Source of the DNA: Peptococcaceae bacterium BICA1-7
GTDB taxonomy: Bacteria > Bacillota > Desulfotomaculia > Desulfotomaculales > Desulfocucumaceae
Direction of reading: 5' to 3'
Assembly: GCA_000802095.1 (NCBI GenBank)
Contig: JUEB01000012.1
Location: 1 to 47,868 of the forward strand
DNA: 47,868 nucleotides
Numbering within the stretch: position 1 is the first letter of the stretch; every line of letters begins with the position of its first letter. Positions 27,548 through 43,467 of this stretch are shown piece after piece. Under the pieces are notes generated by a model. The model did no database searches, had not been told where the DNA came from, and saw only the letters and a list, made by a program, of their open reading frames with translations. Position numbers and translations under genes: made by a program.

Positions 27548-27841
27548 AAAGGAGTAAGCACCTCCAACATATAATTGTTGCCCAAAGAAGCTTTCTTCTT
27601 CTTTATTATCTTATCCATTCTCCAGGTGCAAAAAACCAGGCGAATTTGACATGGAAACAACCTATAAAATGGGGTAAAGGGAATGTCCATATTTAAAAAT
27701 TCTATTATATTATAATTCAAGCTTCTTCGACATTATACGTTTTGGATAAAATGTAAGCTTCGCATTATTTATGCAAAAACTCGTTTCTGCAAGCTATCAA
27801 TTATAAATATTATAGTTAGAATAGTTAATCTTTAATAGAAC

Positions 27842-30800
27842 TTATTGAGGATCTCCAGGCACAACCTTCTCCATTTCTTTTGGATGTTTTGGGCATTGCC
27901 AAACCTCACCTCTACCTCTACGTGCTCGCCGCAGCTTAGTTCGCCCATCAATTTTGCACAAAGGAATACTCTTATAAGGTGGGCGTTCATCGATATTTCT
28001 TAGATAATCCTTGCACTCAGGATTGGAACATCCTACTTTTAGTGCCTGAAAGTCCCATGTGCCATGCTGTCGTCGCTGGTTAACTATATGGGTTGGCATA
28101 TTGCAATATGGACAAACCCTGATACTACCGTCATCATGCACAGCAGCTTTACGAATGTGCTTTGCCTGTAAAAGTTCCAGGCATATTCTTGCATAATCAT
28201 GAGCCTGGATGCGGTGAATAATCTCAATACGGCCCCTATGACTTGACCAGTTCATACTACCGGTATAGACAATCCCCTCGTCAATTATTACATCCTTTCC
28301 GTGTAAACCACTGGCTGTTATTACAAAAGCGCCAAGGCTTCTGAGATTTTTAATTACCTTGCTTACATAAGTTTGGTTTTGAGCTTCACTTATGGGAGGG
28401 GTAACCAATGTTACACCTACTCCCCGGGTCAAAGCATTCCTTATATGTGGTTCAATCGTTGGCCAACGGTACTGCCCAAAATAAGGGGCAAGACCAAATA
28501 TTGACTCTTTTGCGTTATTTATATCTTCAATAAAACAATCAAAAAAAGATACTTCATCAAGGAGTTTAAACATTGGCCCTTTTTCATTGCTCGGAGGCGT
28601 CCACCCTGTTGAAAACAAAGTTGGTTGCTGATAAGGATTAATTGCCAGTTCATCTGCTGAAATTAAATCTGCACGGTCCTTTAAAAATTCCCATAGCTGA
28701 CCAAGTGCACTCGAAGGCTTTGCGTTTTTATTTAACCACTGAGAAGAACCAATAAAAACAAATTTATTTCTTGCCCGGGTAACTGCTACATTTATATCCC
28801 TTATCACCTGATCCCGATCACGGGGATTACAAAGTCTTGCACTATAATATGGTTCGTCCAGTACAGAGTCAAAGATTATTAATTCTGCCTGGCTGCCCTG
28901 AAATGTGTGTACTGTCCCAGCCGCTACCCAGTTATCAAGCTCCATATTTTTTATAAGCCTTGATAACATTCTCCTCTGGGCAGAAAAAGGAGTAACAATT
29001 CCAATTTGGTTATCCGGTTGTTCAATCCTTTGAGCGGCCATAGCCGCAAGTTTAACAGCTATGTTTCCTGAGTAAAAATTAAAACGGCTAAGACTCCCCG
29101 GCTGTTTCCCGCTCCAGCAGTTTAAGTCAGCAGTGTCGATAATCACTAATGGGTTATCGGGGAGAAAATCAAGCCAATCCAGTTTCCCCCTTTTCTTTAC
29201 TTTTGGATGATCCTTTAGTTCAAGGCCGGCTTCCAAATAAACTAATTGTCTAGCTATATCAGCTATTTCAGGAACCATCCGCTGTTGGACAGATAATTTG
29301 GTTAGAGCCTTGCAATTGGGGCTTGGTTTATTATTAATTGCAACCCTAGATAATTCAAAGACATCTCGTCCCATCCTGTCGTTGCTTATCTTCTCATCAC
29401 TACGAATGATTGGAGGGAGTTGAAGAAAGTCGCCGACCAGTATTACTCTAGATTCAGCTTTTCCGGCAGCAATAAATATCATCGGGGGAAGGGCCATAGA
29501 AATCTCATCTATAATTACTGCGTCAAATTTTTGCTTCTGAAGCTCCCTTCCCATAAAACTCTTTGTTAATGTACAGTACACCACTTTAGCTTCTGAAATA
29601 ATTTTTTCCTCTAATTGAGAAATGTTATCTTGCAGGGTACTAATTGTTCCTTTTATTTCGTTTAGCTGCTTCTCAGCGTCTTGTAATTCTTTGGTAATAC
29701 TTTCCCGTTTGGGGAAACCGGCACAAATACCCTTCTGCTTATTCACATCTTTCTCAAATTCAGAACTAATTTGAACCGACTCTTTAAAACTCCGTGAAGC
29801 TTCTACCAAAGCCCTTTCAGCTTTAACCATTTCGTTTTTTGCAGCATTCAAGGCTAATTCTGCTTGTTTTATTTTTTTAACTTTCCAAAGCCAAGCCCTT
29901 TTTGCACGCTCCAATTCATTCTTACATTGTTCAACAATCTCTTTGCATCTCATGGTTTGAGCTTCAGCATTCTTTTGTTTTTCTTTGCTGTCTTTTACAA
30001 GCTCCAATGACTCCTTGAATAGAGAGATCTTGTCATCTAGATTTTTCCACTCAGTAATTGCCTTAGTATTCCATGATATATAATCTGACAGTTGGTTTGC
30101 CTTTTTTTCAAGTTCAATTATTTGAGATCTTATATCCCGAGATTCAATGTCTATCCAATGCTGCAATTTTACTGTATCAGGTATTTTGGGGTCTGAAGTT
30201 ATTCCAACCCTTAAGATTGTTTTATCTAATATGTGTCCATCAATATTCCTTATTAAGGAAAGTGTTTCGTTCAAAGCTTGATCAACAGCAGCATGGGTGT
30301 GACTTGTTACTAGAACACGTTCCCCTTGCTCCATAAGAGCCATAACAAGGTTTGCTATTGTGTATGTTTTTCCTGTACCTGGAGGCCCCCAGATATAAGT
30401 GACAGTTGATCCGCAGGCCTGTTCTATAGTTTTTCTTACTTGGCCTTTAACATCACCTAAACTCTGGGGAAGTTTTGAAACACCGACAGTTGCTTGGTTG
30501 GGACGAAATACTGTAGTTGCTAGACTGCCAACTGCTGAAGGCTCTTCATTAATAACTTCTAAAGCTTCAGCAAGTTTTCTTAAAATTGCGGTATCATCAA
30601 TTATAAGGAGCGCCCTTTGTATCCCAGAATCCGGTATATCAATGCAATCAATTTGTATATGTATTTTATTTGCATATTGGCTAACCACCGAGGCTGGATA
30701 TTCATTTAATTCGGTTTTAAGCTTTCCAGAGGCATCTTCTGGAATTCTTGTACCATCAGCAATGACAAATTCCAAAATAGCTTGGTTAGAATTTAGAGAA

Positions 30801-30979
30801 CCAATAAATCTGCCGGACAATAATTCATATTGCTGAGTTCCACCGTTTTTTCCTAGGAACTCAATTTCTTTATTTACACCTTCTACAAACCACAATGCCA
30901 GTTTTTTTATACTTGAAGGTATTTCTTCATAAGGAATTACTTTTGTTTCTTTTGGTTTGGTGGACGTTTTAGTTGCCAT
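27842..30979 (-). CDS. mkoC: SF1 helicase-PLD nuclease fusion, Mokosh type II-like
   Basis: A ~1045 aa protein. Residues ~195-210 have Walker A YIWGPPGTGKTYTIAN, followed by HTHAAVDQALNE, then a long coiled-coil insertion. Later come the Walker B DAVIIDEISMALPP, GDFLQLPPI, GIVTPFSAQRRML, TVHTFQGSQAELIIFD and VAVTRARNKF: a UPF1/DNA2-like (COG1112) helicase. The C-terminal part has a PLD nuclease motif HGKDVIID (HXKX4D) followed by YTGSMNWSSH, and ends in a zinc-finger-like pair of CPYC and CSNPEC. A single chain with COG1112 helicase plus PLD is the definition of Mokosh type II. The ATG at 30979 has GGGGG 6 nt upstream, better than the longer frame to 31030. It follows the HEPN-like gene 31003-32208 by 23 nt. 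Confidence 0.8.
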   Translation of the reverse strand: MATKTSTKPKETKVIPYEEIPSSIKKLALWFVEGVNKEIEFLGKNGGTQQYELLSGRFIGSLNSNQAILEFVIADGTRIPEDASGKLKTELNEYPASVVSQYANKIHIQIDCIDIPDSGIQRALLIIDDTAILRKLAEALEVINEEPSAVGSLATTVFRPNQATVGVSKLPQSLGDVKGQVRKTIEQACGSTVTYIWGPPGTGKTYTIANLVMALMEQGERVLVTSHTHAAVDQALNETLSLIRNIDGHILDKTILRVGITSDPKIPDTVKLQHWIDIESRDIRSQIIELEKKANQLSDYISWNTKAITEWKNLDDKISLFKESLELVKDSKEKQKNAEAQTMRCKEIVEQCKNELERAKRAWLWKVKKIKQAELALNAAKNEMVKAERALVEASRSFKESVQISSEFEKDVNKQKGICAGFPKRESITKELQDAEKQLNEIKGTISTLQDNISQLEEKIISEAKVVYCTLTKSFMGRELQKQKFDAVIIDEISMALPPMIFIAAGKAESRVILVGDFLQLPPIIRSDEKISNDRMGRDVFELSRVAINNKPSPNCKALTKLSVQQRMVPEIADIARQLVYLEAGLELKDHPKVKKRGKLDWLDFLPDNPLVIIDTADLNCWSGKQPGSLSRFNFYSGNIAVKLAAMAAQRIEQPDNQIGIVTPFSAQRRMLSRLIKNMELDNWVAAGTVHTFQGSQAELIIFDSVLDEPYYSARLCNPRDRDQVIRDINVAVTRARNKFVFIGSSQWLNKNAKPSSALGQLWEFLKDRADLISADELAINPYQQPTLFSTGWTPPSNEKGPMFKLLDEVSFFDCFIEDINNAKESIFGLAPYFGQYRWPTIEPHIRNALTRGVGVTLVTPPISEAQNQTYVSKVIKNLRSLGAFVITASGLHGKDVIIDEGIVYTGSMNWSSHRGRIEIIHRIQAHDYARICLELLQAKHIRKAAVHDDGSIRVCPYCNMPTHIVNQRRQHGTWDFQALKVGCSNPECKDYLRNIDERPPYKSIPLCKIDGRTKLRRARRGRGEVWQCPKHPKEMEKVVPGDPQ

Positions 30980-31002
30980 ATATGTCCCCCATTTTTGGTG
31001 TT

Positions 31003-32208
31003 TTAAATAGTATGAGAAAGTTGTGTCCAATGAGGTTTTTTATACCATATATTTTCCCATATCATACGGTCCGGGTAAAGAAACCTCATCCACAGCCTAT
31101 TGGTTAATGTTATAATCTCAGCAAATAACTGTAAGGAATCGAAGGCAAGTTGGATGTCTGTGCCATCCGGATGACTTAAATCGTTTCTCCTTAAAAAAGG
31201 ATAGTTTAGGTCGTTTACTTCGCCAGGTGAGAGTATATTGTACTTGGCTAAAAGATGAAGTATATCATTCTTACTCCTGTCTTTAAGTTTGAGAAAAGGC
31301 TTACCATTGACGCTCTCAACATACCAGTACTCTTTTGTCTCCCAACCAAGCCATTTTGCAAGAACTGAAATGTCCCCATATGTATTAACATCAATTTTTT
31401 CTTTAATGATTTGCTTTTTTGTTTTAGGGTTTTCCAATACTATAATGAGCGGAGTCTTGAACATCTTGACATAAAGAGTTTTCATACTAGTCTCAATTGA
31501 CATTGTGGAATAATGCTCTGACATAGTAAAGAATTCCCAATCTTGATATCCCCAGATGCACAATTTGGCGCTTCGATTGAGAACTTCAAATACATTCTTA
31601 GGAACACATGTCAATAAAGAAGATGCATTAACTTGCGAAACTATATCCTGGTATGAAAGTGGGCTCATCTCACCTTCATAAGTTAACCTTGAAAATGCAC
31701 TTATCTGAAGACAAGGTTTGGGGTTTTCCGGAAACGGCATTATCTCCCAGGTCTGATATCCCACCTCTTCAAATAAAGCTTTCTCTTTGTTATCCCAATC
31801 TTTTAAAATTGGTTCAGCAAATCTTAATTTTATAATTTCATAGATATTATCTGCAAGACCCATAGTAACTAGAAATTCTGAAGTATCTTCTTTAATAACA
31901 ATGTAAACAGTATTGTCTAAAGGGATATAACCACCACTATAACCTTTTTCAACAGAAGCCATTAAAATGGGTGGCAACTCTTCATACCTTTGCACTAACC
32001 AATCCTTTGTTTTTGTACCAAATGTAATCCAGATAACAATGAAACTATTTCCAACATATTCATTTACCACACAAGGCATAATTACACCTATTGCATGCTT
32101 CATAGCTAAATGCAATTGTCTTACACTCTTATGTGGCTCAAATTCCATATCTAAAAAGCGTTTTTGTGTATTACGGAGAATATCCAAAACAATACTTACT
32201 CCATACAA
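31003..32208 (-). CDS. Unknown protein with a C-terminal HEPN-like RNX3H motif, co-operonic with the Mokosh-like gene
   Basis: A 401 aa protein. Most of it is not recognisable; it has a mixed alpha/beta N-terminal region with no membrane segment. Near the C terminus FLRRNDLSHPDGTD contains R341-N342-X3-H346, the classical RNX3H form of HEPN RNases, followed by a helix-rich tail. The ATG has AGGAGG 12 nt upstream. The helicase-PLD gene starts 23 nt downstream, so they are likely one operon. HEPN proteins often act as RNase effectors beside defence ATPases. No partner of this kind is part of the described type II Mokosh as I know it, so this may be an added component. Confidence 0.5.
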   Translation of the reverse strand: MYGVSIVLDILRNTQKRFLDMEFEPHKSVRQLHLAMKHAIGVIMPCVVNEYVGNSFIVIWITFGTKTKDWLVQRYEELPPILMASVEKGYSGGYIPLDNTVYIVIKEDTSEFLVTMGLADNIYEIIKLRFAEPILKDWDNKEKALFEEVGYQTWEIMPFPENPKPCLQISAFSRLTYEGEMSPLSYQDIVSQVNASSLLTCVPKNVFEVLNRSAKLCIWGYQDWEFFTMSEHYSTMSIETSMKTLYVKMFKTPLIIVLENPKTKKQIIKEKIDVNTYGDISVLAKWLGWETKEYWYVESVNGKPFLKLKDRSKNDILHLLAKYNILSPGEVNDLNYPFLRRNDLSHPDGTDIQLAFDSLQLFAEIITLTNRLWMRFLYPDRMIWENIWYKKPHWTQLSHTI

Positions 32209-32361
32209 TCGAATAGCCTCCTAAAACTAGTAAAACGATAGGGAAGATCGAGTCACATGTATTGCCGGTACAACCTTTAACAGGTTTTTACACCTTATAA
32301 TTTTTCCCTCAAAAGTAAAGCCAGGGAACACTCCCTATACGTACAAAGTTGGATGCTTTTT

Positions 32362-33672
32362 TTAGACTACTGTAGTATCAATGCTCTGTTGAATGGCAGC
32401 AACAACCGCCCTGCCATTTTTCAGAACTGCATCAACCAGCGTCTTAAGATACGCAGTTGTTTCGGCATACCCGCCAATGTATCCTGATTTAACCAAGTCG
32501 AGGAAGGCACTCTCGCGGAGATAGTGTCCTGAAAGACTTTTGTAGCTCACACGTAATCCTTTTTTCGGGCCTCGGAAGGCTGGGTCCGTCCTTATTTTTT
32601 CGAAATGATCAATCGGAGTAATGATGCCGCCATTTCTTATTAAACCATTTCTTTTAACGAACTTAAGATAAAAGACCCCCGGATTGAACCGGTACTCGTG
32701 CAAACCCGGCGATTGATCCTTAATGAATTTGCGCATCCGACCTAATTCTTCCTCCAACTTTGCATCAGGTCGGTATATCCAATCTGTAGTATCCAAACCA
32801 TCGCGTTGTGGTTCCAACATCTTGTACTGAAGCATCACGATATTCTGCCGCGTGACATTTAAATAAATTAAGTCAACACCCAAAGCTTTTTCAAGAGATC
32901 GGCGGTTAGCCGTATAAACCTCTAACCGTTGGTCACCTTTCTTAAAGACTGCATGGCCTGTTAAATCACTTTTTACAAGTTTATAGTCCGAAATATACCT
33001 TGCATCGTGTTCAATTACTGAATCTTCCATTATGCCGACGCGTGCCAACGCTGTTTCCCTTCCCTCCACAAGTTCCAGTGCCAGGGCCGGATCATCGAGG
33101 GTTAGACCGAAGACTTTAAGAGCTGTGTGAATGGCATCCTCCTGTAATGCCTTGGCACCCAGGAATCGCTTTTGAGAAGTTAGCGATTCCGTAATGGCAC
33201 GCATGGGGCCCCTATTTTCTTCAACCGATACGAGTTTCTCAACCAGATGGCTGCTGAGCTTTGGCGACAGGATCACAATAGGCGCAGCAGAACGAAGTCT
33301 CTCCTTTAAGTTTTGTGCATGAGGCTTTTCAGAGATAAATTGGATGAGATTGACATTGGATGCTGTTTTGATCCGTGCTACACGTCTGATCTTGATACGT
33401 GTTTCTAAGGTAGTTACGGCGCTCCGTGAGCTAATCAGACCAAAGTATAGATGTTCACAGGCATCGTTCCTGCGCTGAATCAGGCAGGGTGTAGGTACAC
33501 TGACCCCTTTGAGAAGTGAATGCGGGCGGGCAATAGTAAATTCATTTAAACCTCGACGGGATCCTTGTAAAAACTCCCATTCCTCATCCCCGAACCTGAG
33601 AACAACGATTGGTTTCTTTTCAGCAATTACCATAAGATTACTTAACCAAGGTGTTTGAGTGTTTAAAGCCAT
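32362..33672 (-). CDS. Unknown third protein of the OLD-UvrD module, possibly nuclease-like
   Basis: A ~436 aa protein of no family I can name. A central stretch, GVDLIYLNVTRQNIVMLQYK, has an acidic residue followed by a hydrophobic strand ending Q-x-K, a layout seen in diverged PD-(D/E)XK nucleases; that suggestion is speculative. The C-terminal part contains GGIITPIDHFEKI. The ATG at 33672 has GGAGG ~8 nt upstream and overlaps the end of the helicase gene by 10 bp, so all three proteins of the trio are translated in a coupled way. Two-gene Gabija-type modules (OLD nuclease plus UvrD helicase) lack this component. It is followed by a 150 bp gap with no recognised structure. Confidence 0.5.
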   Translation of the reverse strand: MALNTQTPWLSNLMVIAEKKPIVVLRFGDEEWEFLQGSRRGLNEFTIARPHSLLKGVSVPTPCLIQRRNDACEHLYFGLISSRSAVTTLETRIKIRRVARIKTASNVNLIQFISEKPHAQNLKERLRSAAPIVILSPKLSSHLVEKLVSVEENRGPMRAITESLTSQKRFLGAKALQEDAIHTALKVFGLTLDDPALALELVEGRETALARVGIMEDSVIEHDARYISDYKLVKSDLTGHAVFKKGDQRLEVYTANRRSLEKALGVDLIYLNVTRQNIVMLQYKMLEPQRDGLDTTDWIYRPDAKLEEELGRMRKFIKDQSPGLHEYRFNPGVFYLKFVKRNGLIRNGGIITPIDHFEKIRTDPAFRGPKKGLRVSYKSLSGHYLRESAFLDLVKSGYIGGYAETTAYLKTLVDAVLKNGRAVVAAIQQSIDTTVV

Positions 33673-35708
33673 ACCGGACCCTCCTGGATGACACGTGCAA
33701 CCTTCCAAGTAATTGATTTGAGCTGATTTAACTCATCCAGGCTAAACGTATCCTCTCTCATGGCTAGGCACAAGAGATGGCTGGGCCGCGTCATCGCCAC
33801 ATAGTGCTGCTTAAGGCTTGATATGATACGATTTCCTTCTTTACCTTTGCCCCAATTTTTTCCCAAAAGCCAGGGTTTCAATTTGGCGAGATGGTGCTCA
33901 TAATAATACGTCTCCATAACTAGAGTTGCCGTATGTGTTTCCCCCTTAACTGAATGTATAGAGCCCATTCGGATTTGGACCTGTGGATTAACCGCAGGAT
34001 ATCGAAATATATTGCCGCGCTGAAGAGAAGAAATTGATTCATGGTCCAATTGGTCTGGCAACTCCCATTCAAGAAATTCCTTTGCAATAGTAGGATCGGG
34101 TGGCACGCCGCAAATTGCCTCAGCAAGATATACGATTGCGTCAGACCACTTGTTGGTCCAATCATCCATGGAAGGAACACTACGTTCAACAGCCAAAAAC
34201 ATTATAAGATCACGATAAGTAGCTATTGCATCCGGATTGTCAGCCAACAGTTCCAGTACATAGCGATGCTTACGACGCCGATTACACAAACCAGCGGACG
34301 GATTTGACAGGCTTGCCAACCGTAAGAGTCCATCTGCGACTTTTTCTACCAAGTGATGCGCTTCACCAGAAGAATTAACGAGCTTGTATCCTGTCCTCAG
34401 ATACTGAAGGAAGCTCTTCGGCCTTGGTTCGGCAGCCGTTAGTTCATGGTCATATTCCTTCCAATACTGCCCCACAGAACGCGGCAAATGGTCATCGCCA
34501 CCAGGTCTATGAACACCGCCGACGGCGGTAAATATCCCTTCGCGCAGATCTTCTTTGGAAAAAACCATCAGAAGATAATCTGCATATACATTCATAACCT
34601 GCTCTATGGTCTGATCGTTAAAAAGAAAGATTGCGTGTCTGTTCTTTAAATCAGACCTGATGATTCTGCTGGAAGGGCCACAACCCACTAGATTTTGAGG
34701 GGCTAGAGCCAAAGGATCAGCAATATGGGCTATCTGCATACCAAATCGATGACTGTTCGGGATGTCTTTTTTGATGCAGGCATCAGGAAATTTGTCGGTT
34801 GTAGCACCCACAGTCTGGTAAGCATTCAGATAAATCGCTTGATTGGAATCACCTAAGCGCTGGCGGACAACTGGATTATTACCATCCATGAATAGCCTAA
34901 ATAATAGGACAGATTGTGACTCGCTATTGTCCTGCACTTCATCAATAAACAGGAGTGGGAAACGCCCCCTGATGGCATCCTGTACTTCCGGGACCTGGTC
35001 GAGAAGGTCATGAGCCCACATGAACATTTCATCGTAACGGTGATAACCATCCCTTACAGTTCTCTCAGCTAATGCCATGAGTTGTCTGGCCGCTGGTTTT
35101 GTATCATCTTTAAACTCTGACTGATTATCTTCCTTAAGAACATCAAATGCTGATGAGACTACACACCATTTTGATACGACATTGTGCTTACCACTATCTT
35201 CTCGCCGGTTCACGTAGTTACCTAATGCCCTGAATTGAATACGATTGAGCAAACGTCTTCTATGCTGCTCACATCGCTCATTATCAATAAAATTGACGGG
35301 ATATCCAAGGGAGCGGAGCCACGGAATAGCAAGAAATTCATTGACAAAACCGTGAATAGTTCCCACGAAATGGGGATAGGACAGGAGGCGCTCACCTTCC
35401 GCAGTATTGCCAAGACGTTGTTCGATTTCTCTCCGAGCAACATTCGTGTGTGAAAGCACACAAATACCTCGGTGCGGGTCGGTCCATTTTCGGGCAAGTA
35501 TAGCGAGCTTTGCAACGAGCAGTGTTGTCTTGCCACTACCTGGGCAGGCTTCGATGTCCAGGGTTTCGTTGGACTTGAGAATCTCCATTCGTGGGTCGTT
35601 GCCATCGGCTCCGCTGAAAGCATTCTCGGGCAGCCGCAGAAGTTCGCATACCCACGCAACATCATCATCCGTTATACAAGGACACTCGAACAAGGGTAGC
35701 TCATTCAT
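33663..35708 (-). CDS. UvrD/Rep-like SF1 helicase of an OLD-helicase defence module (GajB-like)
   Basis: A ~681 aa SF1A helicase. Walker A is ACPGSGKTT (residues ~54-62), Walker B LLFIDEVQD, then RLGDSNQAIY (motif III-like), GSIHSVKGETHTATLV (motif V) and HYVAMTRPSHLL (motif VI, where most have VALTRA). The ATG at 35708 has GAGGGGG 6 nt upstream and overlaps the upstream OLD gene by 8 bp. Paired OLD nuclease and UvrD-like helicase genes are typical of class 2 OLD systems, including Gabija (GajA-GajB). This protein is longer than GajB from the Bacillus system (~494 aa, from memory), so it is a relative and not clearly the same system. Confidence 0.8.
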   Translation of the reverse strand: MNELPLFECPCITDDDVAWVCELLRLPENAFSGADGNDPRMEILKSNETLDIEACPGSGKTTLLVAKLAILARKWTDPHRGICVLSHTNVARREIEQRLGNTAEGERLLSYPHFVGTIHGFVNEFLAIPWLRSLGYPVNFIDNERCEQHRRRLLNRIQFRALGNYVNRREDSGKHNVVSKWCVVSSAFDVLKEDNQSEFKDDTKPAARQLMALAERTVRDGYHRYDEMFMWAHDLLDQVPEVQDAIRGRFPLLFIDEVQDNSESQSVLLFRLFMDGNNPVVRQRLGDSNQAIYLNAYQTVGATTDKFPDACIKKDIPNSHRFGMQIAHIADPLALAPQNLVGCGPSSRIIRSDLKNRHAIFLFNDQTIEQVMNVYADYLLMVFSKEDLREGIFTAVGGVHRPGGDDHLPRSVGQYWKEYDHELTAAEPRPKSFLQYLRTGYKLVNSSGEAHHLVEKVADGLLRLASLSNPSAGLCNRRRKHRYVLELLADNPDAIATYRDLIMFLAVERSVPSMDDWTNKWSDAIVYLAEAICGVPPDPTIAKEFLEWELPDQLDHESISSLQRGNIFRYPAVNPQVQIRMGSIHSVKGETHTATLVMETYYYEHHLAKLKPWLLGKNWGKGKEGNRIISSLKQHYVAMTRPSHLLCLAMREDTFSLDELNQLKSITWKVARVIQEGPVWL

Positions 35709-37767
35709 GTGTAGCCCCCTCACTAGCTTGGGCTGACTCTTTTCCTGATGACCCATCTCTCTTGCCATGAAGCGTAACGTGGTCGATTGCTTGTACGAGA
35801 TATGGAGGCAGAATCGATCGTAAATTTTGCCTTTTTTTATGCCGTGATTCTAGCAGGGATGCGAGATACTGAGCAGATGTGGCCTTGGATATATTTGAGT
35901 TTGAAGCGAGGAGCCCATAAACATGTGAAGCTAATTCCTCATTTGTCGGGCTGTTAACAACAACTTCAGCATAGGATCTCAGCGCTTCCCGGATAACTGT
36001 CTTCCTTGTCTTCTTACAGGTGTTTATTTGTTCGTCTTCCCTAGCAAGACATACTGCGGTCCAAACATATTTAGCCAAACCATAGAAAGCTAAATCGTAT
36101 TCCAGGGTCCACTCGTCAGCGACGAATGTCTCTACCTTTTGGCCTGAGGCCCTGGCCCGAATCTCTTTGCGGCGGGTTTTTAGCCCCTCCACCGTAAAAT
36201 CTCCTTTAACACGCCAGCGCCGATCACTTATGTTAGGCAATTCTTCACCCGGCTTAACTTTCTTAATTATTACCGGGGCACAGTCGGGCATTACATCATA
36301 GTCCGCTACACAGGCGACGGGTATATTAATTATTCCGTCCTTCTCAGGGTGTTTGCGCTGATAAATGCGTGCAAAGCGTCGCAATCCCGTGCCCCCGACA
36401 TTAGCGATTGAAACACCGTATTCTGCTAAGTTCCGATCGATTAACCGAGCCAGTGTAGGAAGAAGAATGTTTTCAGCATCCCCCTCTACAATTAACAAGC
36501 CACGAGCAAAGAATAAGTTGGCCTTTGTAACATCAAGAAATCGCTTCAAGAAACCGTAATCTGATTTTTCAAGGTGTGTCTGGCCAAACGCCATTGGGAA
36601 TGCCTTCCCACCATGCAGCAAAACAAGATTGTCAAGATCTATTGCAGATGTAAGGTTCGGGCTATGCGTGGTTACAATGATCTGTATTTGCTGGCCGTCA
36701 GGCCGAGGTTCACTCGCCTTTTCTTGTAGAAATTGCATAAGACGAAGCTGGCGCTGAGGATGCAAATGTGCTTCCGGTTCCTCGATTAACAACAGAGGGA
36801 ATTCATCAGTGTCGGACTCTAACAGTAACATCTCGCAGGCCATAAAGAGAATGTTGTTCGATCCGAGGCCCCTACTTGGTGGAGGTTCAGGAGCCCTTTC
36901 GTCGCGCAGTTCTAATTCTAATTTTTCCAGAAGTTGACGGAGGCGGTATTCGGTATCTCCTTTGGAGCCACTGACTGATATGGAACCACGCAACTGATCT
37001 CCGCTAAAGGAGAGATTCTTTAGATACTCTGAGTTTAATCGATTTCGTGCATTCTGAACTCCTTGATGATTGCCTAGAAGTGCATTTGCATAATCACCGA
37101 TACCCAAAACGCTTAAATTACGTGGGTCGACTGACAACCCATCTTGCGGATCATAGTCCTGCCCATGTTCCCTGATCTCCTTAGTATGCTGCAATATCTG
37201 TGAAAGCCGCGATCCCCGTCCAGCTGAAAGGGCACGCTCTGCATCACGTAGAGGCCGCAAGTAGGTGGCACATAGGTGCATCCTCGCCTCAGCATCCAAT
37301 TGCGGACCCTTCCCGAATTGTCCTGACCTAGCTTCTACAGAAATATACTTCCTCTGACCCACTCGTTTTGTTAAAACAACAGCCTTCCAATTGATATAAA
37401 GAACCGGAACCATATTGCCGCTATGGTCTTCATAAGTCAAATACTCAGCAAAGGATGACTTATCTATTATGGTAAGTTCGTTGAACTTACAACGAATTCG
37501 AATCTCCTTACAACGCATGGTTCCATCAGCTGGCTGGTGGAAATCAGCCTCTTCCACCCTATAAAACTCCTGGTCACGTGTGCCAAGAGCCAAGCGAAGT
37601 GCGTCTATAACAGCTGTTTTGCCAGCATCGTTCTCGCCTACGATTGCCGTTAAACCTGCTCGAAGTGGGAGAACAAAGGCCCGTTCACCTTCACCGAACA
37701 TTCTGAAATTCTCGATCCGAAGTTCAGAAAGATACACGCTAAATACATCCCCTATTTCATACAGCAT
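35701..37767 (-). CDS. OLD-family ATP-dependent endonuclease (GajA-like)
   Basis: A ~688 aa protein with an N-terminal ABC-type ATPase and a C-terminal Toprim nuclease. The start of the ATPase is LSELRIENFRMFGEGE, with Walker A GENDAGKT (44-51). The Walker B region is LLLIEEPEAHLHPQ (~325-338), followed by TTHSPNL (~367). The Toprim motifs are LLIVEGDAEN (~428) and CVADYDVMP (~491), so the metal-binding acidic residues are present. The ATG at 37767 is preferred; a TTG at 37845 would add 26 residues not homologous in character. First gene of the three-gene overlapping operon. OLD/UvrD pairs act in phage defence by nicking DNA, as known for Gabija. Confidence 0.8.
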   Translation of the reverse strand: MLYEIGDVFSVYLSELRIENFRMFGEGERAFVLPLRAGLTAIVGENDAGKTAVIDALRLALGTRDQEFYRVEEADFHQPADGTMRCKEIRIRCKFNELTIIDKSSFAEYLTYEDHSGNMVPVLYINWKAVVLTKRVGQRKYISVEARSGQFGKGPQLDAEARMHLCATYLRPLRDAERALSAGRGSRLSQILQHTKEIREHGQDYDPQDGLSVDPRNLSVLGIGDYANALLGNHQGVQNARNRLNSEYLKNLSFSGDQLRGSISVSGSKGDTEYRLRQLLEKLELELRDERAPEPPPSRGLGSNNILFMACEMLLLESDTDEFPLLLIEEPEAHLHPQRQLRLMQFLQEKASEPRPDGQQIQIIVTTHSPNLTSAIDLDNLVLLHGGKAFPMAFGQTHLEKSDYGFLKRFLDVTKANLFFARGLLIVEGDAENILLPTLARLIDRNLAEYGVSIANVGGTGLRRFARIYQRKHPEKDGIINIPVACVADYDVMPDCAPVIIKKVKPGEELPNISDRRWRVKGDFTVEGLKTRRKEIRARASGQKVETFVADEWTLEYDLAFYGLAKYVWTAVCLAREDEQINTCKKTRKTVIREALRSYAEVVVNSPTNEELASHVYGLLASNSNISKATSAQYLASLLESRHKKRQNLRSILPPYLVQAIDHVTLHGKRDGSSGKESAQASEGATHE

Positions 37768-38223: not shown

Positions 38224-39108
38224 TTGAAAGAGAAGTACTGGATTATTGAACTAAAAACATTAGATGCCGAAACCAAAAGAATCGCCAATGAATTTTTACA
38301 AAACATGAAGCTAGCCAATAAATCACCCGTCACAATCGACAAGTACCGGCGTGTAATGGAGAAATTTTTTACGGAATGTCCTACGCCACTACAGGAGCTA
38401 TATCCAGATGATGTTCTCAACTGGCTTCACAGCTTTTATGGGGATAGGAAAGAGAGGACAATTGATCAGGTCCTCGCAGTTCTATCAAGCTTTTTCAAGT
38501 TCTGCCAGGCCGAGGAATACATTGACCGGGTTCTAATAAAGAATCGCTGGCGCCCGCGGTTACCCAGGACCCTTCCGAAGTATTTAAACAGCAGTGAATT
38601 AGCCCGGGTAAAAATCGCCGCCGAAAAACTATCTCTGCGAGACCGGGCTTTAGTATTGTTTTTGTTAAGTTCCGGGTGCCGTCGCTCAGAAGTATCGGGA
38701 CTAAATGTAGATGATGTTGACCTGGATAATAGAACAGCCCGGGTATTAGGAAAGGGCAATAAATTTCGGGAGGTACATTTCGATGAGGAAAGTGCCCTTA
38801 TCCTGAAAAAGTACTTAAATAACAAACCAAGAGATAAAAAGCCTTTATTTTTGAATCAATTTGGGGAAAGGCTCATGCCCATTGGCATTTATGCAATTAC
38901 CACAAAGCTTGGCAAAAAGGTAGGGCTACCTCATAGCCTTAGCCCGCATTGCTGCCGGCACACCTTTGCCACCAATATGATGGCCAGAGGAGCTGAGTTG
39001 GAATTTATAGGCAATGAGTTGGGGCACCGTGATCTTAACACAACCAGGGTTTACACTAGAATTCTTTCAGACCAAATCATTGCCGCCTACAGGAAAATTA
39101 AGGAGTAG
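38224..39108 (+). CDS. Tyrosine recombinase, type A, first of five
   Basis: A 294 aa integrase with a SAM-like N-terminal core-binding domain (residues ~15-100) and a catalytic domain. The catalytic set is complete: R in SSGCRRSEV, K-containing beta strand GKGNKFREV, HCCRHTFAT (HXXR), LGHRDLN and the nucleophile tyrosine in TTRVYTRI. The TTG start has AAGGA 8 nt upstream. It resembles recombinase 4 (40843), sharing the N-terminal pattern of W-aromatic residues and LDAETKRIANEF-like segments. Downstream genes follow with 3-35 nt gaps, making one operon. Probably part of the machinery that integrates this element. Confidence 0.9.
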   Translation: MKEKYWIIELKTLDAETKRIANEFLQNMKLANKSPVTIDKYRRVMEKFFTECPTPLQELYPDDVLNWLHSFYGDRKERTIDQVLAVLSSFFKFCQAEEYIDRVLIKNRWRPRLPRTLPKYLNSSELARVKIAAEKLSLRDRALVLFLLSSGCRRSEVSGLNVDDVDLDNRTARVLGKGNKFREVHFDEESALILKKYLNNKPRDKKPLFLNQFGERLMPIGIYAITTKLGKKVGLPHSLSPHCCRHTFATNMMARGAELEFIGNELGHRDLNTTRVYTRILSDQIIAAYRKIKE

Positions 39109-39111
39109 AAT

Positions 39112-39951
39112 ATGAGAACACATGATGCCATGGAATCTTTCTTTAAAGACAATGCGGCAAGGTTTTCCAATGAAACCGTCTTGAAATATAGGCAGTCGCT
39201 TAGGCAGTTCTTCACTTTTTGTCCAAAAGAATTTGACCAAGTTATGTCAGAAGACATCCGGTCCTGGCTTTCAGCGCTAAAAGAGGCGAAACAGAAGCCC
39301 AGAACAATTCGAACAAGGCTGGTATCCCTTCGCTCATTTTACCAGTACTGCTTTGAAGAGAAATTTATCCGAAAAAATCCGACATTGAATATAGCATTAC
39401 CCCAGATAGATCAATCACTGCCTGTCTATTTAGAAACAAATGAAATAGCACAGCTGATGGAGGTTGCAAAAGAGTACCCTAGAGACCGTACCGTTTTCGA
39501 GATTTTATATGACACTGGGATCCGGGCAAATGAATTGTTAAACATTAAGCTTTCCGACATTAGATGGGATACCCAACAGATATGGATCAGGAAAGGTAAA
39601 GGAAAAAAAGATAGGTTTGTCCTTTTTACCGCAGAGTGTGCCGAAAGAATAAGAAATTACCTGGCAAATCGCAACATAGAAAGCCCTTACCTTTTTGCCA
39701 ATAGACATGGAAAAGCTTTGAGTAGGGCATGGCTTCAGAAGCTTTTTTCATGCTATCACAAGAAACTATACCTAGAGCAAAGGTTCACTCCCCATACAAT
39801 GAGGCATACCTTTGCGGCACATCTGGCTGAAAAAGACATGCCCCAGAGTTATATTCAAGAACTCCTAGGTCATGTCAACATTAATAGTACCAGGATTTAC
39901 ACCAATCTTAGTGCCAAAACTAGGAAGAAACAATATGATAGTTTTCAATAG
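39112..39951 (+). CDS. Tyrosine recombinase, type B, second of five
   Basis: A 279 aa integrase. The catalytic residues are complete: R in DTGIRANELL, the lysine-rich strand IRKGKGKKDRFV, HTMRHTFAA, LGHVNIN and the tyrosine in STRIYTNL. Its N-terminal segment SQETVLKYRQSLRQFF-like marks the second recombinase type, shared with the third and fifth genes. The ATG has AAGGAG overlapping the end of gene 1. The closeness of the genes suggests translational coupling. Confidence 0.9.
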   Translation: MRTHDAMESFFKDNAARFSNETVLKYRQSLRQFFTFCPKEFDQVMSEDIRSWLSALKEAKQKPRTIRTRLVSLRSFYQYCFEEKFIRKNPTLNIALPQIDQSLPVYLETNEIAQLMEVAKEYPRDRTVFEILYDTGIRANELLNIKLSDIRWDTQQIWIRKGKGKKDRFVLFTAECAERIRNYLANRNIESPYLFANRHGKALSRAWLQKLFSCYHKKLYLEQRFTPHTMRHTFAAHLAEKDMPQSYIQELLGHVNINSTRIYTNLSAKTRKKQYDSFQ

Positions 39952-39964
39952 TAGGTGAAATATA

Positions 39965-40807
39965 ATGGAAAAAACCAATTATATAATTAACTATTTTATT
40001 AAAGAAAACGAGGCAAAGTTTTCCCAAGAAACAGTTAGGGGATATACGATTTCGCTTAAGCAATTTTTTGCCTTTTGCCAGAAAGAGTATGATGCGGTCA
40101 AGACAGCAGACATTCGGGACTGGCTTATAGAGCTTAATAGTGCCGGTCTAAAGCCCCGGTCGATTAGTTTAAAACTAGCGAGTTTAAGATCATTTTATCG
40201 ACGCCTAATAGAAAATGAATTAATTTCAAAAAATCCTACCCTAGATATAAATTCCCCAAAGATAGAAGATTATTTGCCAGTTTACTTGGGCAAAGCTGAT
40301 CTGGTTCAGTTGATGGAAGCCGCAAAGGACCACACCAGGGACCGGGCAGTCCTTGAAACCTTATACGCCACCGGGGTCCGGGCAAGTGAGCTTTTGAATA
40401 TCCGCCTGGAGGACATCAAATGGGATATAAGGCAAATCTGGATTAGGAAGGGCAAGGGGAATAAAGAGCGTTTTGTCCTTTTTACCGCTGAGTGTGCCGA
40501 AAGGTTAAAACATTACCTTGCAAATAGGCAAATTGAAAGCCCATATTTGTTTGCCAATAGGTGGGGTAACCCTTTCAGCCGGGTGTGGCTTGAAAAAAGG
40601 CTTAGCCGTTATGCAATAGGGTTTAATTCAAGATATAAAATTACACCACATACTTTAAGGCATACTTTTGCCGCCCACCTGTCCCAAAAAGATATGCCCC
40701 AGGCCCATATACAAGAATTATTGGGACACATAAATATAAATACCACCAAGATTTATACAAGATTACAGTCCATAGCACGAAAAAAACAGTACGATAGCTA
40801 TCAGTAA
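39965..40807 (+). CDS. Tyrosine recombinase, type B, third of five
   Basis: A 280 aa integrase similar to the second one. Catalytic residues: R in ATGVRASELLNI, IRKGKGNKERFV, HTLRHTFAAHL, LGHININ and the tyrosine in TTKIYTRL. The gap to gene 2 is 13 nt. Genes 2 and 3 look like a tandem duplication, since both share RDTAV/RDRAV-type helix and the C-terminal RKKQYDSYQ pattern. Confidence 0.9.
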   Translation: MEKTNYIINYFIKENEAKFSQETVRGYTISLKQFFAFCQKEYDAVKTADIRDWLIELNSAGLKPRSISLKLASLRSFYRRLIENELISKNPTLDINSPKIEDYLPVYLGKADLVQLMEAAKDHTRDRAVLETLYATGVRASELLNIRLEDIKWDIRQIWIRKGKGNKERFVLFTAECAERLKHYLANRQIESPYLFANRWGNPFSRVWLEKRLSRYAIGFNSRYKITPHTLRHTFAAHLSQKDMPQAHIQELLGHININTTKIYTRLQSIARKKQYDSYQ

Positions 40808-40842
40808 TACCCCGTTAAAATTAACTTTAAGAGGAATTAGTT

Positions 40843-41727
40843 ATGATAAAGGAATATTGGGTTATAGATGATAAGAAAATTCATAATGAAACTAGAAAAA
40901 TTATCAATGATTTTTTTACTACTTTAAAAGTGGCAAACCGGGCTAAACTAACAATTACTACATATCGAGGAGTATTAAAAAGATTTTTTCTTGACTGTCC
41001 AAAGCAGCTATCGGAATTAACCCCAGATGACGTTCTTAATTGGCTTCGTAAAAATCACAGGTATAAGAAAGAGACAACAATAAATTTATTTATCAATGTT
41101 TTGAATATTTTCTTTAAGTACTGCCAGACAGAGGGATACATAGACAAGGTTATGATTAAACGATATTGGAAGCCGAAGTTACCAAAAACCACCCCCAAAT
41201 ACTTGGATAATAGCGAACTGGCTAAGGTCAAGCTATGTGCCGAAAAAAATAATATACGGGACCGAGCTATTGTTGAATTATTAGTATCTTCCGGCTGTAG
41301 GTGCGCAGAAGTACATTACTTAAATATAGAGGATCTTGACCTCACTAACAGAACAGCGCGGGTCATTGGCAAAGGAAAAAGTTTGAGGGAAGTGCACTTT
41401 ACTGAAACATGCGCCATCTTACTGAAAAAATATCTTAAGTATCATCCACAAAACATTTCAGCTCTTTTTTTAAATAAATTCGGAAAAAGACTTGGACAGA
41501 GATCAATTTATAATATTACCTCAGTGCTGGGTAAAAAAGCAGGTTTGCGCCGTAACCTTGGTCCTCACTGTTTGCGGCATACCTTTGCTACACGGCTTCT
41601 GGCAAAAGGGGCTGAATTGGATTTTATTGCCGAGGAACTTGGTCATAAAGATATTAATACCACCAGGGTATACGCAAGACTCCCATCGGAACAAATAGTG
41701 AATCTATATCGCAGGTATATGGGATAA
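40843..41727 (+). CDS. Tyrosine recombinase, type A, fourth of five
   Basis: A 294 aa integrase, the same length as the first one and with the same N-terminal architecture (YWVIDDKKIHNETRKII). Catalytic residues: R in SSGCRCAEV, GKGKSLREV, HCLRHTFAT, LGHKDIN and the tyrosine in TTRVYARL. The A-B-B-A-B order suggests duplication of an A-B pair. A good Shine-Dalgarno (AAGAGGA) lies ~8 nt upstream of the ATG. Confidence 0.9.
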   Translation: MIKEYWVIDDKKIHNETRKIINDFFTTLKVANRAKLTITTYRGVLKRFFLDCPKQLSELTPDDVLNWLRKNHRYKKETTINLFINVLNIFFKYCQTEGYIDKVMIKRYWKPKLPKTTPKYLDNSELAKVKLCAEKNNIRDRAIVELLVSSGCRCAEVHYLNIEDLDLTNRTARVIGKGKSLREVHFTETCAILLKKYLKYHPQNISALFLNKFGKRLGQRSIYNITSVLGKKAGLRRNLGPHCLRHTFATRLLAKGAELDFIAEELGHKDINTTRVYARLPSEQIVNLYRRYMG

Positions 41728-41730
41728 TTT

Positions 41731-42573
41731 ATGAATATGACTATGGAAACTATAAACAAATACTTTTATGATAATGAACTAAAATTTTCTAAACATACTA
41801 TCAAAGCATATAGCAATTCTTTAAAAGAGTTTTTTTCTTTTTGCAAGAAGGAATACGACGAAGTTAAAGCTACCGATATAAGAGATTGGCTAGCTGTATT
41901 TATTAACTGTGGCTATAAACCTAACTCTATCATCCTAAAATACTACAGTTTAAAGTCTTTTTACCAATACTGCATAGAGGAAGGCTTAATTAAAAAAGAT
42001 CCTACTTCAGACATGCTTTTACCCGAAAAAGAAAAATTGATACCGGTTTATTTAAATCAACAAGAATTGGCAAATTTAAAAAATGCTTCAGCCAATAGCC
42101 CAAGAGACCGCGCAATTATTGAGACCCTTTATACTACTGGAGTTCGGGTAAGTGAACTCGTCAATATAAAAAAAGAAGATATAAATTGGTACAACAAAGA
42201 AATTCTAATATGTAAGGGAAAAGCCAAGAAAGAGCGATTTGTTCTTTTTACCATCGAATGCGCCGAAAGATTAAAGAAATACCTGGCCTTACGTATAGAT
42301 GAAAGCCCCTACCTTTTCGTCAACGGACAAGGGTACCCTCTAAGTGTAAGGGGGGTTAACTTTATTCTTAATAAATATTCCAAAATTCTAAACCTAGGCT
42401 ACAGTATATCACCTCATAAGTTAAGGCATACTTTTGCAGCCCGTTTGGCGGCAAAAGGCATGCCACTAAGTTGCATACAGGATTTGCTAGGACATGATAA
42501 CATAAAAAATACCATTATATATACAAGGCTTTATGCGCAAGCTAGAAAGAATAAATACGACAATTTTTATTAA
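41731..42573 (+). CDS. Tyrosine recombinase, type B, fifth of five
   Basis: A 280 aa integrase of the same type as the second and third. Catalytic residues: R in TTGVRVSELVNI, CKGKAKKERFV, HKLRHTFAARL, LGHDNIK and the tyrosine in NTIIYTRL. It starts 3 nt after the fourth gene and is the last before the element's right end; the next 140 bp hold only the hairpin at 42658-42691. Its DNA is more AT-rich than genes 1-3, so the copies are not recent duplicates. Confidence 0.9.
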   Translation: MNMTMETINKYFYDNELKFSKHTIKAYSNSLKEFFSFCKKEYDEVKATDIRDWLAVFINCGYKPNSIILKYYSLKSFYQYCIEEGLIKKDPTSDMLLPEKEKLIPVYLNQQELANLKNASANSPRDRAIIETLYTTGVRVSELVNIKKEDINWYNKEILICKGKAKKERFVLFTIECAERLKKYLALRIDESPYLFVNGQGYPLSVRGVNFILNKYSKILNLGYSISPHKLRHTFAARLAAKGMPLSCIQDLLGHDNIKNTIIYTRLYAQARKNKYDNFY

Positions 42574-42714: not shown

Positions 42715-42760
42715 GGCAAGTGCGAATACTGCTACCTGCATACTACACTGGGCAACAGGC
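42715..42760 (+). other. Putative attR of element 1 / attL of element 2: second copy of the splB attachment sequence
   Basis: Starts with GGCAAGTGCGAATACTGC as at 22310, within codons for the radical-SAM motif. Left of it the sequence is unrelated to splB. Confidence 0.65.
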
Positions 42761-43467
42761 CGTATCTACGTATCTATGTCAATGTCGATGAAATACTGGC
42801 AAAAGCAGAGGAATATATAAAGGAAAAAAGTCCTGAAATAACACTTTTCGAGGGAGCCGCCACCTCGGACCCTATACCGGTGGAGAAGTATTCCGGGTCC
42901 CTTAAAAAAGCCATAGAGTTTTTCGGAAAGCAGGAGCTGGGGCGCTTCCGCTTTGTCACCAAGTACACTGAGGTTGACTCCCTGCTGGACGCCGACCACC
43001 GGGGACACACCCGGTTTCGCTTCAGCATAAACACCCAGCATGTTATTAAAAGGTATGAGCACGGTACACCTGGGGCCGAGGAGCGCCTGGAGGCGGCCAG
43101 GAAGGTGGCCGGTGCAGGCTATCCCCTGGGTTTTATTATCGCCCCCATTATTGTATACCCCGGCTGGGAGAAGGACTATGGAGAATTAATGGAGAGTTTG
43201 AGGGAAAAGCTTGGCCCGTCGGCGGAAAGCAACATCACCTTTGAGCTGATAAGCCACCGCTTCACCGCCAGGGCCAAGAAGAGAATACTGGACATATTCC
43301 CCACCAGCACCCTGCCCATGCAGGAGGAGGAAAGGAAATTTAAATACGGGCAGTTTGGGTACGGCAAATATGTTTATCCGAAGGAAACCATGGAAGAGTT
43401 AAAGTCATTGTTCATCCGGGAAATTGACACATATTTCCCGACAGCTAATATTGAGTACCTGGTTTAG
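42715..43467 (+). pseudogene. splB: splB 3' fragment, middle copy (5'-truncated)
   Basis: Encodes the last ~250 residues of spore photoproduct lyase, from Gly-Lys-Cys-Glu-Tyr-Cys to the C terminus, with an intact reading frame and natural stop. It lacks the first radical-SAM cysteine and the N-terminal ~90 residues, and no start codon with a ribosome site precedes it. It is highly similar to the complete copy; the C-terminal 30 residues differ most (YPKETMEELKSLF against YPKETLQEMDSLF). It could be expressed only if recombination joined it to the 5' part at 22040-22309, which would give a full-length protein. Not a working gene in the present arrangement. Confidence 0.9.

What the first reader, a model, noticed from the sequence alone, without database searches (positions are those of the whole stretch)
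32362..37767. Three-gene OLD nuclease-UvrD helicase-unknown module with overlapping genes
The OLD/Toprim and UvrD-like proteins recall Gabija or class 2 OLD systems, but both are longer than the classical ones (from memory), and a third gene overlaps the helicase by 10 bp. The third protein has a segment that could be a diverged PD-(D/E)XK nuclease core (D-L-I-Y ... Q-Y-K). Tight coupling suggests a functional complex of three parts, a possible new subtype.
Basis: partly seen in the sequence, partly recalled or inferred. Interest (0 to 1): 0.6.

Follow-up and report, generated by a model that had tools for sequence, protein, structure and literature searches.

The report
Gabija operon with add-on nuclease
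This is an ordinary two-gene Gabija anti-phage system with a third gene added: a nuclease of an unnamed family, predicted to read chemically modified DNA, whose relatives are also found inside several other defence systems.

Summary
The three overlapping genes are real. The first two are a Gabija (class 2 OLD + UvrD) pair: PADLOC GajA E=3e-208, GajB E=1e-184; their extra length is normal for this branch. The third gene (P3, 436 aa) has no Pfam, PADLOC or NCBIfam match. Its predicted structure has an N-terminal PUA-superfamily fold (nearest: YTH and EVE modified-base readers, including the restriction enzyme VcaM4I) and a C-terminal PD-(D/E)XK-like nuclease fold (nearest: Hjc, RecU), with E, D and QxK in 92 of 92 sequences (QYK partly selected for). 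A 'three-part subtype' is not supported: 12 of 92 P3 loci, window included, have a GajA-GajB pair beside P3, in both gene orders, and 0 of 12 fetched loci with the most similar GajB carry P3. Other P3 genes lie in BREX, type I and type III restriction operons. Best reading: a travelling, probably modification-dependent (type IV-like) nuclease recruited as a second line of defence. The set is cargo of a ~20-kb island inserted in a spore photoproduct lyase gene.

The parts
35701..37767 (-). GajA: OLD-family ATPase with TOPRIM nuclease domain, 688 aa; Walker A GENDAGKT, Walker B LLLIEEPEAHLHP, TOPRIM VEGDAE and ADYDVMPD
   Evidence: AAA_15 1.5e-29, OLD-like_TOPRIM 6e-15; PDLC00099 3.4e-208; motifs read from the sequence, their names recalled
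33663..35708 (-). GajB: UvrD-like SF1 helicase, 681 aa; Walker A ACPGSGKT, LFIDEVQDNS, VAMTRP
   Evidence: UvrD-helicase 3.7e-24; PDLC00105 1e-184; motif names recalled
32362..33672 (-). P3: uncatalogued two-domain protein, 436 aa, PUA-superfamily reader-like domain + PD-(D/E)XK-like nuclease
   Evidence: (no family match)
33169..33657 (-). P3 N-terminal PUA-superfamily (YTH/EVE/ASCH-like) domain, residues about 6-168
   Evidence: predicted structure; structural matches
32473..33027 (-). P3 C-terminal PD-(D/E)XK-like nuclease domain, residues about 216-400; E216, E261, D267, Q282, K284 (ATG numbering)
33663..33672 (-). 10-bp overlap of GajB stop and P3 start (ATGGCTTTAA), AGGAGG upstream
35701..35708 (-). 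8-bp overlap of GajA and GajB

Best explanation
The locus is a complete two-gene Gabija system (GajA nuclease-ATPase, GajB helicase) to which a separate, mobile restriction nuclease, P3, has been added downstream with overlapping translation. P3 most likely acts as a modification-dependent (type IV-like) endonuclease. Its N-terminal PUA-superfamily domain binds a modified base in incoming phage DNA, probably by base flipping, and its C-terminal PD-(D/E)XK-like domain, probably as a dimer, cuts that DNA. It would catch phages whose hypermodified DNA escapes other defences. Gabija runs in parallel; co-transcription gives shared control and not necessarily a complex. SHOWN: gene order, overlaps, Gabija assignment, predicted two-domain fold, invariant catalytic-type residues, recurrent but non-exclusive linkage. 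INFERRED: DNA as target, modification dependence, dimerisation, phage defence, independence from GajAB.
For: Gabija identity. Two-domain model, mean pLDDT 82.9 whole and 86.2 with pTM 0.84 for the C-terminal domain alone. N-terminal domain: YTHDC1 Z 9.5 (rmsd 3.4, 140 aligned), THYN1 9.3 (3.5, 126), EVE protein 1zce 9.2 (3.6, 130), VcaM4I restriction enzyme 9.2 (3.5, 131), all tied; Foldseek's first five rows are ASCH domains (5gus prob 1.00, E 0.014). C-terminal domain: Hjc 4tkd Z 8.6 (3.4, 114), RecU/PrfA 8.1-7.8, then more Hjc, a homing endonuclease, SPARDA nuclease, NhoI, PvuII, EcoRV. E228, E273, D279, Q294, K296 (TTG numbering) in 92 of 92; LE..LG.DL...QYK kept in 3 of 3 new relatives found with the whole profile and in 7 of 7 plasmid relatives of A1 found by tblastn. 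P3 sits beside a Gabija pair in 12 of 92 loci, BREX core genes in 18 and RM genes in 7, each enriched over other slots in the same loci. 0 of 12 fetched loci with the most similar GajB carry P3. PUA-superfamily reader + PD-(D/E)XK or HNH nuclease is an established design of such enzymes (PMC7897488, passages; PMC12707154, passages).
Against: Foldseek E-values are weak (best 0.014 and 0.046), and no viral model matches clearly. Models without a clear match often reach Z 7-8 (tool note), so the C-terminal Z of 8.6 is only just above that level and rests on the motif and on the rows agreeing; a few unrelated rows (Rep15-Rab complexes Z 7.0-6.8, a mitoribosomal protein 4.7) stand among them. No Pfam EVE, YTH or ASCH match, and no binding pocket or aromatic cage was mapped; the most conserved N-terminal residues are T88 and R92, not a Trp cage. 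Many P3 genes share operons with BREX or RM methylases, while such enzymes usually come without methylases (PMC7897488). Q in place of D/E in the (D/E)XK motif is known in MspJI- and Mrr-type enzymes only from recall. The genome-scan relatives were selected by a QYK pattern, so QYK invariance is biased.
Confidence: 0.58

Rival explanations
1. P3 is a dedicated third subunit: GajA, GajB and P3 form one complex in which GajAB senses nucleotide depletion or DNA ends and P3 adds or redirects cleavage.
For: Overlapping genes in the window; P3 directly follows GajB with gaps of 0 to 53 bp in L016, L017, L019, L029, L064; linkage 12 of 244 slots against 1 of 775; the Gabija label is clustered on the P3 tree (1 of 500 shuffles as low) and the window's third and fourth nearest P3 rows, L017 and L016, are Gabija-linked.
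Against: 80 of 92 P3 loci have no GajAB pair beside them; P3 lies before GajA in L009, L010, L028, L070, L081, L086 and after GajB in six others; the Gabija label needs 8 gains or losses on the P3 tree, at least 6 forced by supported branches; 0 of 12 fetched loci with the most similar GajB have P3.
Confidence: 0.15
2. P3 is a Shedu-like effector: a nuclease gated by a variable N-terminal sensor that sees something other than a modified base (DNA ends, a phage protein, RNA), causing abortive DNA damage.
For: PUA/ASCH-superfamily domains are generally RNA-binding (PMC7641849, passages); Shedu nucleases sit directly before related GajAB pairs in L100 and L101, so this Gabija branch recruits sensor-nuclease proteins; Shedu-type enzymes are listed as BREX auxiliaries (PMC12839542 section 35).
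Against: No DUF4263 match and no sequence similarity to the L100 Shedu protein; the nearest structural matches of the N-terminal domain are modified-base readers.
Confidence: 0.17
3. The PUA domain reads host methylation as a self mark: P3 is held off by, or licensed by, a partner methylase and cuts unmodified DNA.
For: 24 of 88 P3 tree rows lie in operons assigned to BREX (10 + 7) or RM (5 + 2), most of them with a methylase or part of one next to P3.
Against: None of the seven island proteins scanned from the minus-strand operons of the window has a methylase match; an unprotected host would be cut.
Confidence: 0.06
4. P3 is a neighbour by accident in a defence island and has no shared role with Gabija.
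For: Defence genes cluster; the window island holds other defence-like genes.
Against: 10-bp overlap in the window and repeated adjacency in 12 of 92 loci, odds ratio 40 over other slots.
Confidence: 0.04

Closest known systems
Gabija (GajA-GajB; class 2 OLD + UvrD)
   Same: GajA ATPase-TOPRIM and GajB helicase, adjacent, same strand, motifs intact, near full-length PADLOC matches
   Different: Longer subfamily than the solved Bacillus-type proteins, and a third gene that was absent from 12 of 12 fetched loci with the most similar GajB
VcaM4I / EVE-HNH and other PUA-superfamily modification-dependent restriction endonucleases (MspJI, PvuRts1I, TagI)
   Same: One ORF, PUA-superfamily reader-like domain joined to a nuclease domain (PMC7897488 passages)
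   Different: PD-(D/E)XK-like instead of HNH (VcaM4I); reader nearer YTH/EVE/ASCH than SRA (MspJI) in the rows listed; embedded in Gabija, BREX and RM operons; modification dependence untested
McrB with YTH domain (Thermococcus gammatolerans)
   Same: YTH-type fold as DNA reader in a type IV system (PMC12707154 passages)
   Different: No GTPase; nuclease is in the same chain
BREX auxiliary nucleases: GmrSD, SRA-HNH, PD-(D/E)XK REases
   Same: Nuclease, sometimes with a reader domain such as SRA, embedded between BREX core genes as an auxiliary restriction factor (PMC12839542 section 35, both parts)
   Different: That section names no PUA/YTH/EVE-type domain joined to PD-(D/E)XK; its supplement was not readable here, so P3 may be counted there
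Shedu (SduA, DUF4263)
   Same: Sensor domain + PD-(D/E)XK nuclease, also found next to GajA
   Different: No profile or sequence match

Membership tests
Gabija | GajA: OLD-type ATPase with TOPRIM domain | tested here: met
Gabija | GajB: UvrD-like helicase next to gajA, same strand | tested here: met
Gabija | NTP-sensed DNA nicking and phage defence | not testable with these tools
   needs biochemistry
Gabija as a three-gene subtype | P3 is a regular member: found with most P3 genes' neighbours and with the closest GajAB pairs | tested here: not met
   12 of 92 P3 loci; 0 of 12 fetched loci with the most similar GajB
Modification-dependent (type IV) restriction endonuclease of the PUA-reader kind | PUA-superfamily fold in the reader domain | tested here: met
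   predicted fold only:
Modification-dependent (type IV) restriction endonuclease of the PUA-reader kind | nuclease domain with intact active-site-type residues in the same chain | tested here: met
   motif and predicted fold:
Modification-dependent (type IV) restriction endonuclease of the PUA-reader kind | no dedicated methyltransferase | tested here: inconclusive
   no methylase match in the seven island proteins scanned, but 24 of 88 tree rows lie in BREX or RM operons
Modification-dependent (type IV) restriction endonuclease of the PUA-reader kind | cleavage depends on a modified base | not testable with these tools
   needs biochemistry
EVE family (Pfam) | match to the EVE profile | tested here: not met
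   no match at E<=0.1 for P3 or at E<=1 for 7 relatives; fold likeness only
Shedu (DUF4263) | match to the DUF4263 profile | tested here: not met
   no similarity to one Shedu protein
Holliday junction resolvase Hjc/RecU | Hjc-like PD-(D/E)XK fold | tested here: inconclusive
   predicted fold, Z 8.6 (rmsd 3.4, 114 aligned) and 8.1 (3.5, 136); extra domain and contexts do not suggest a resolvase
Holliday junction resolvase Hjc/RecU | four-way junction cleavage | not testable with these tools
   needs biochemistry

The most novel reading that the evidence does not exclude
P3 is a plug-in part: one modified-DNA-reading nuclease family that physically docks into unrelated defence machines (Gabija, BREX, type I and III restriction, an Avs-like STAND protein) and serves all of them as a common backup cutter, so that one docking logic is reused across systems that share no other component.
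Probability: 0.2. Interest if true: 0.75.

Novelty: new variant of a known kind. Interest (0 to 1): 0.48.

Why it matters
If P3 is a modification-dependent nuclease, it is a family of the PUA-reader restriction enzymes without a Pfam, PADLOC or NCBIfam model in the copies searched here, and it would explain a set of 'hypothetical' genes inside Gabija, BREX and RM operons. It would also make testable whether multi-gene defence systems are completed by interchangeable readers of phage DNA modification, and it warns against naming a new Gabija subtype from gene overlap alone.

Tried and rejected
Three-part Gabija subtype: rejected on linkage and trees. 'Longer than classical' as novelty: rejected. 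Shedu membership: no profile or sequence match. Solved-structure sequence search with the P3 profile: one chain, E 0.39, unrelated. Structure search against viral models: nothing at E 0.001. Phage records: no P3 match. Viral contigs: 2 P3 relatives, no match to the GajB peptide patterns. Own phylum: with the P3 profile 1 of 398 genomes, the window's own; with the single P3 protein 3 of 398 at E<=0.01, two of them weak partial hits that the profile did not confirm; the PDLC00105 GajB model 2 of 398, own genome included. Phylum of the L059 genome: P3 in 4 of 398, L059's own genome included; in the other 3 no Gabija profile match in the fetched flanks, but one contig ends about 0.5 kb upstream of P3 and one P3 is a 210-aa fragment.

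Literature: 'Gabija' + 'third gene', 'GajC' (155 papers, 20 listed, none on Gabija), five terms with 'accessory nuclease' (none), GajA + GajB + 'additional gene', EVE domain + modification-dependent restriction + BREX, PUA/EVE/type IV/Gabija (20 of 36 listed), ASCH/YTH/EVE, Gabija + type IV + accessory: none of the titles and abstract beginnings listed describes P3 with Gabija. Of the papers I opened: PMC12839542 passages and section 35 in full, PMC7641849, PMC12707154 and PMC7897488 passages only. Supplements could not be read. The BREX paper also tells of ASCH/PUA readers fused to DUF3780 in BREX-related systems.

Limits: the genome scan kept 80 of 123 confirmed relatives, all chosen through one QYK pattern. 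Of 10 plasmid records with P3 9 were fetched. Of the 16 best plasmid GajB rows (H11-H26) 11 were fetched; H14 and H20-H23 were not. Of the 12 GajB loci, L102 has no recognisable GajA and L107 has it in two pieces. Contexts beyond the PADLOC-checked representatives (L041, L077, L018, L047, L055, L033) rest on local HMM likeness; L087, one of the 18 BREX loci, is the least sure. 53 of 92 loci stay unclassified. 15 of the 80 P3 loci without a pair have under 4 kb on one side. In that tree L006, L069 and L076, OLD-type genes in P3 loci without an adjacent pair, were labelled as not linked. The other no-P3 rows were picked by likeness to the window's GajB, so the trees do not estimate how common P3 is in Gabija at large. 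Pocket analysis of the N-terminal domain was not possible (no coordinates in the script box).
Full report
WHAT IS THERE. On the minus strand three genes follow each other: 35701-37767, 33663-35708 and 32362-33672, taking the ATG starts. The frames are open further upstream to TTG (37845), ATG (35768) and TTG (33708). The junction sequences show an 8-bp overlap between the first two and a 10-bp overlap, ATGGCTTTAA, between the second and third, with AGGAGG before the third start. A 153-bp gap separates the third gene from the next one, with a weak terminator-like hairpin at 32322-32337; such sites are about as frequent in shuffles (8 found, mean 6.1).

THE FIRST TWO GENES ARE GABIJA. The first is an OLD-family ATPase with TOPRIM domain and the second a UvrD-like helicase. 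PADLOC puts them firmly in Gabija: GajA PDLC00099, E 3.4e-208, profile 2-620 of 626; GajB PDLC00105, E 1e-184, profile 7-648 of 649. By sequence the nearest solved protein to GajA is the class 2 OLD nuclease 6nk8, with GajA entries next; for GajB it is GajB. Walker and TOPRIM motifs read intact in the sequence (motif names recalled).

THE THIRD PROTEIN. P3 has no match in Pfam, PADLOC or NCBIfam, and 7 plasmid relatives have none above threshold in Pfam. Relatives came from plasmids by tblastn (10 records, 9 fetched), a genome scan (123 confirmed, 80 kept) and viral contigs (2); none from phages. In 92 sequences (window, 9 plasmid, 80 genome, 2 viral) E228, E273, D279, Q294 and K296 (numbering from the TTG) never vary. 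The genome scan chose loci by a QYK pattern, so QYK there is partly selected; E228, E273 and D279 are not. The 7 plasmid relatives in A1 keep all five residues, and 3 relatives found with the whole profile keep the LE..LG.DL...QYK core (one is a fragment that starts inside the domain).

PREDICTED STRUCTURE. AlphaFold2 on 73 sequences gave pLDDT 82.9. The first 168 residues match PUA-superfamily domains: YTHDC1 Z 9.5 (rmsd 3.4, 140 aligned), THYN1 Z 9.3 (3.5, 126), the EVE protein 1zce Z 9.2 (3.6, 130) and the EVE domain of the restriction enzyme VcaM4I Z 9.2 (3.5, 131); these are ties. Foldseek's own first five rows are ASCH domains with probability 0.99-1.00 but E only 0.01-0.03. The nuclease part folded alone gave pLDDT 86.2, pTM 0.84, and most listed rows are PD-(D/E)XK enzymes: Hjc Z 8.6 (3.4, 114), RecU/PrfA 8.1-7.8, SPARDA, NhoI and Eco15I, PvuII, EcoRV, with a few unrelated rows such as Rep15-Rab at 7.0-6.8. 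Since unmatched models often reach Z 7-8 (tool note), this rests on agreement with the motif. Foldseek E-values for it are weak, PvuII first at 0.046. In the N-terminal domain T88 is present in 73 of 73 and R92 in 68 of 73, with F45, H51 and Y76 common; no pocket could be mapped.

WHERE THE FAMILY LIVES. Gene maps and PADLOC on representatives with Pfam show P3 between PglX and DUF3644/PDC-S19-PglZ-BrxL in type I BREX (L041 and kin); between HerA or BrxC and PglXI in a second BREX type with DUF6079-type BrxC, often SIR2 and HerA (L077 and kin); between Mod and a UvrD helicase in type III RM (L018, L030); between HsdM and HsdS or after HsdS in type I RM (L040, L047; L037, L055, L057); after an Avs1-like protein (L033); before a DUF6119 protein (L011); and beside GajA-GajB in 12 loci. 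In the Gabija loci P3 follows the pair in the window, L016, L017, L019, L029 and L064 and precedes it in L009, L010, L028, L070, L081 and L086; in L009 insertion sequences now separate GajA from GajB.

NUMBERS. A GajA of a GajA-GajB pair occupies 12 of 244 same-strand slots within two genes of P3 and 1 of 775 other slots in the same loci (Fisher p 2.9e-7); BREX core genes 31 of 244 against 25 of 775 (18 loci); RM genes 16 of 244 against 6 of 775 (7 loci). Many of the BREX 'elsewhere' hits belong to the same operons. Of the 80 loci without a pair, 65 have at least 4 kb on both sides. On a tree of 88 P3 rows the Gabija label needs 8 gains or losses, at least 6 forced by supported branches; it is still clustered (1 of 500 shuffles as low). 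The window's nearest rows are L015 (partner RhuM) and L018 (type III RM), then the Gabija-linked L017 and L016; the second BREX group is one clade. In trees of 25 GajA and 25 GajB rows the window's pair lies in clades whose other rows, 11 and 12, lack P3. A P3 profile finds P3 in 0 of 12 fetched loci with the most similar GajB: 11 plasmid loci with up to 6 kb flanks and the genome locus L097, the closest of all (67% identity in GajA over the part compared), confirmed on its wider stretch L110. Long branches make the deep joins of those two trees unsafe. Four of 398 genomes in one draw from the phylum of L059 have P3; the three new ones show no Gabija profile match in the fetched flanks.

HOW IT PROBABLY WORKS. 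A reader of modified bases joined to a nuclease in one chain is the standard build of NTP-independent modification-dependent restriction enzymes, and PUA-superfamily readers with PD-(D/E)XK or HNH domains are established (PMC7897488, passages; PMC12707154, passages). The best reading is that P3 cuts phage DNA bearing modified bases, next to but not as part of Gabija. Since P3 shares operons with BREX and type I methylases, which mark the host with N6-methyladenine (recalled), it should not cut every 6mA site; a cytosine hypermodification is the more likely cue. This is inference. A recent BREX survey describes reader-linked HNH enzymes, PD-(D/E)XK enzymes and OLD-type pairs embedded in BREX loci as auxiliary or backup effectors (PMC12839542, section 35). 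P3 fits that theme and extends it to Gabija and RM; the section names no PUA/YTH/EVE-type reader joined to PD-(D/E)XK.

SETTING. The operon is cargo of an island. Two copies of the 3' part of a spore photoproduct lyase gene, 91% identical over 675 bp, stand at 22310-22983 and 42715-43388, each starting with the same 29 bp, found exactly twice in the window. The left copy completes an intact gene (22040-23062); the right one is a leftover that matches lyase residues 88-340. Five tandem tyrosine recombinases end about 140 bp before the right repeat. This looks like site-specific insertion into the stretch coding for GKCEYCYLHT, the radical-SAM motif (recalled), with restoration of the gene; further lyase fragments lie at 44909-45274 and on another contig. 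No empty site was examined.

VERDICT. Real feature, ordinary Gabija, interesting unnamed third gene; a new variant of a known kind (PUA-reader nuclease as operon add-on), not a new three-part Gabija.

Noticed in passing
window 22310-42743: About 20.4-kb island between exact 29-bp repeats inside a spore photoproduct lyase gene; the island carries its own 3' part that restores the gene on the left, and a leftover 3' part remains on the right.
   Followed up: partly
window 38224-42573: Five consecutive tyrosine recombinases (294, 279, 280, 294, 280 aa), all with a Phage_integrase domain, at the right end of the island.
   Followed up: partly
window 44909-45274; G000:C13:4491-4898: Further lyase fragments; the one on C13 holds the first 26 bp of the repeat with 2 mismatches, suggesting repeated insertions at this gene. 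A same-family genome (G400) also has lyase fragments.
   Followed up: partly
window 23232-32208 (-): Second defence-like gene group after P3: 401-aa protein with RNDLSH (HEPN-like motif by eye), 1062-aa SF1 helicase + PLD protein resembling Mokosh MkoA/MkoC, 1132-aa protein with a sub-threshold nSTAND5 match, 306-aa unknown. The 401-aa and 1132-aa proteins have no tblastn match in plasmids.
   Followed up: partly
L100:2495-3835, L101:2414-3835: Shedu nuclease genes directly before GajA in Cupriavidus plasmids whose GajB is about 45% identical to the window's: another accessory nuclease on the same Gabija branch.
   Followed up: partly
L042, L049, L072; L006:9782-12279: OLD-type ATPase genes (337-386 aa, weak GajA likeness) inside BREX loci that also carry P3, and an AAA_21 ATPase with a 284-aa partner after P3 in L006; possibly PARIS-like, not tested.
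   Followed up: no
L021-L023, L031 (431-aa gene before P3): A 431-aa protein (L021 copy without Pfam or PADLOC match) forms a tight pair with P3 (3-bp gap) in four loci.
   Followed up: no
L069:9918-12543: P3 relative split over two ORFs about 1.3 kb apart, with GajB-GajA a few genes away on the other strand.
   Followed up: no
window 45510-47849 (-): S-layer-type protein with five MBG_2 stretches and SLH domains beyond the island.
   Followed up: no
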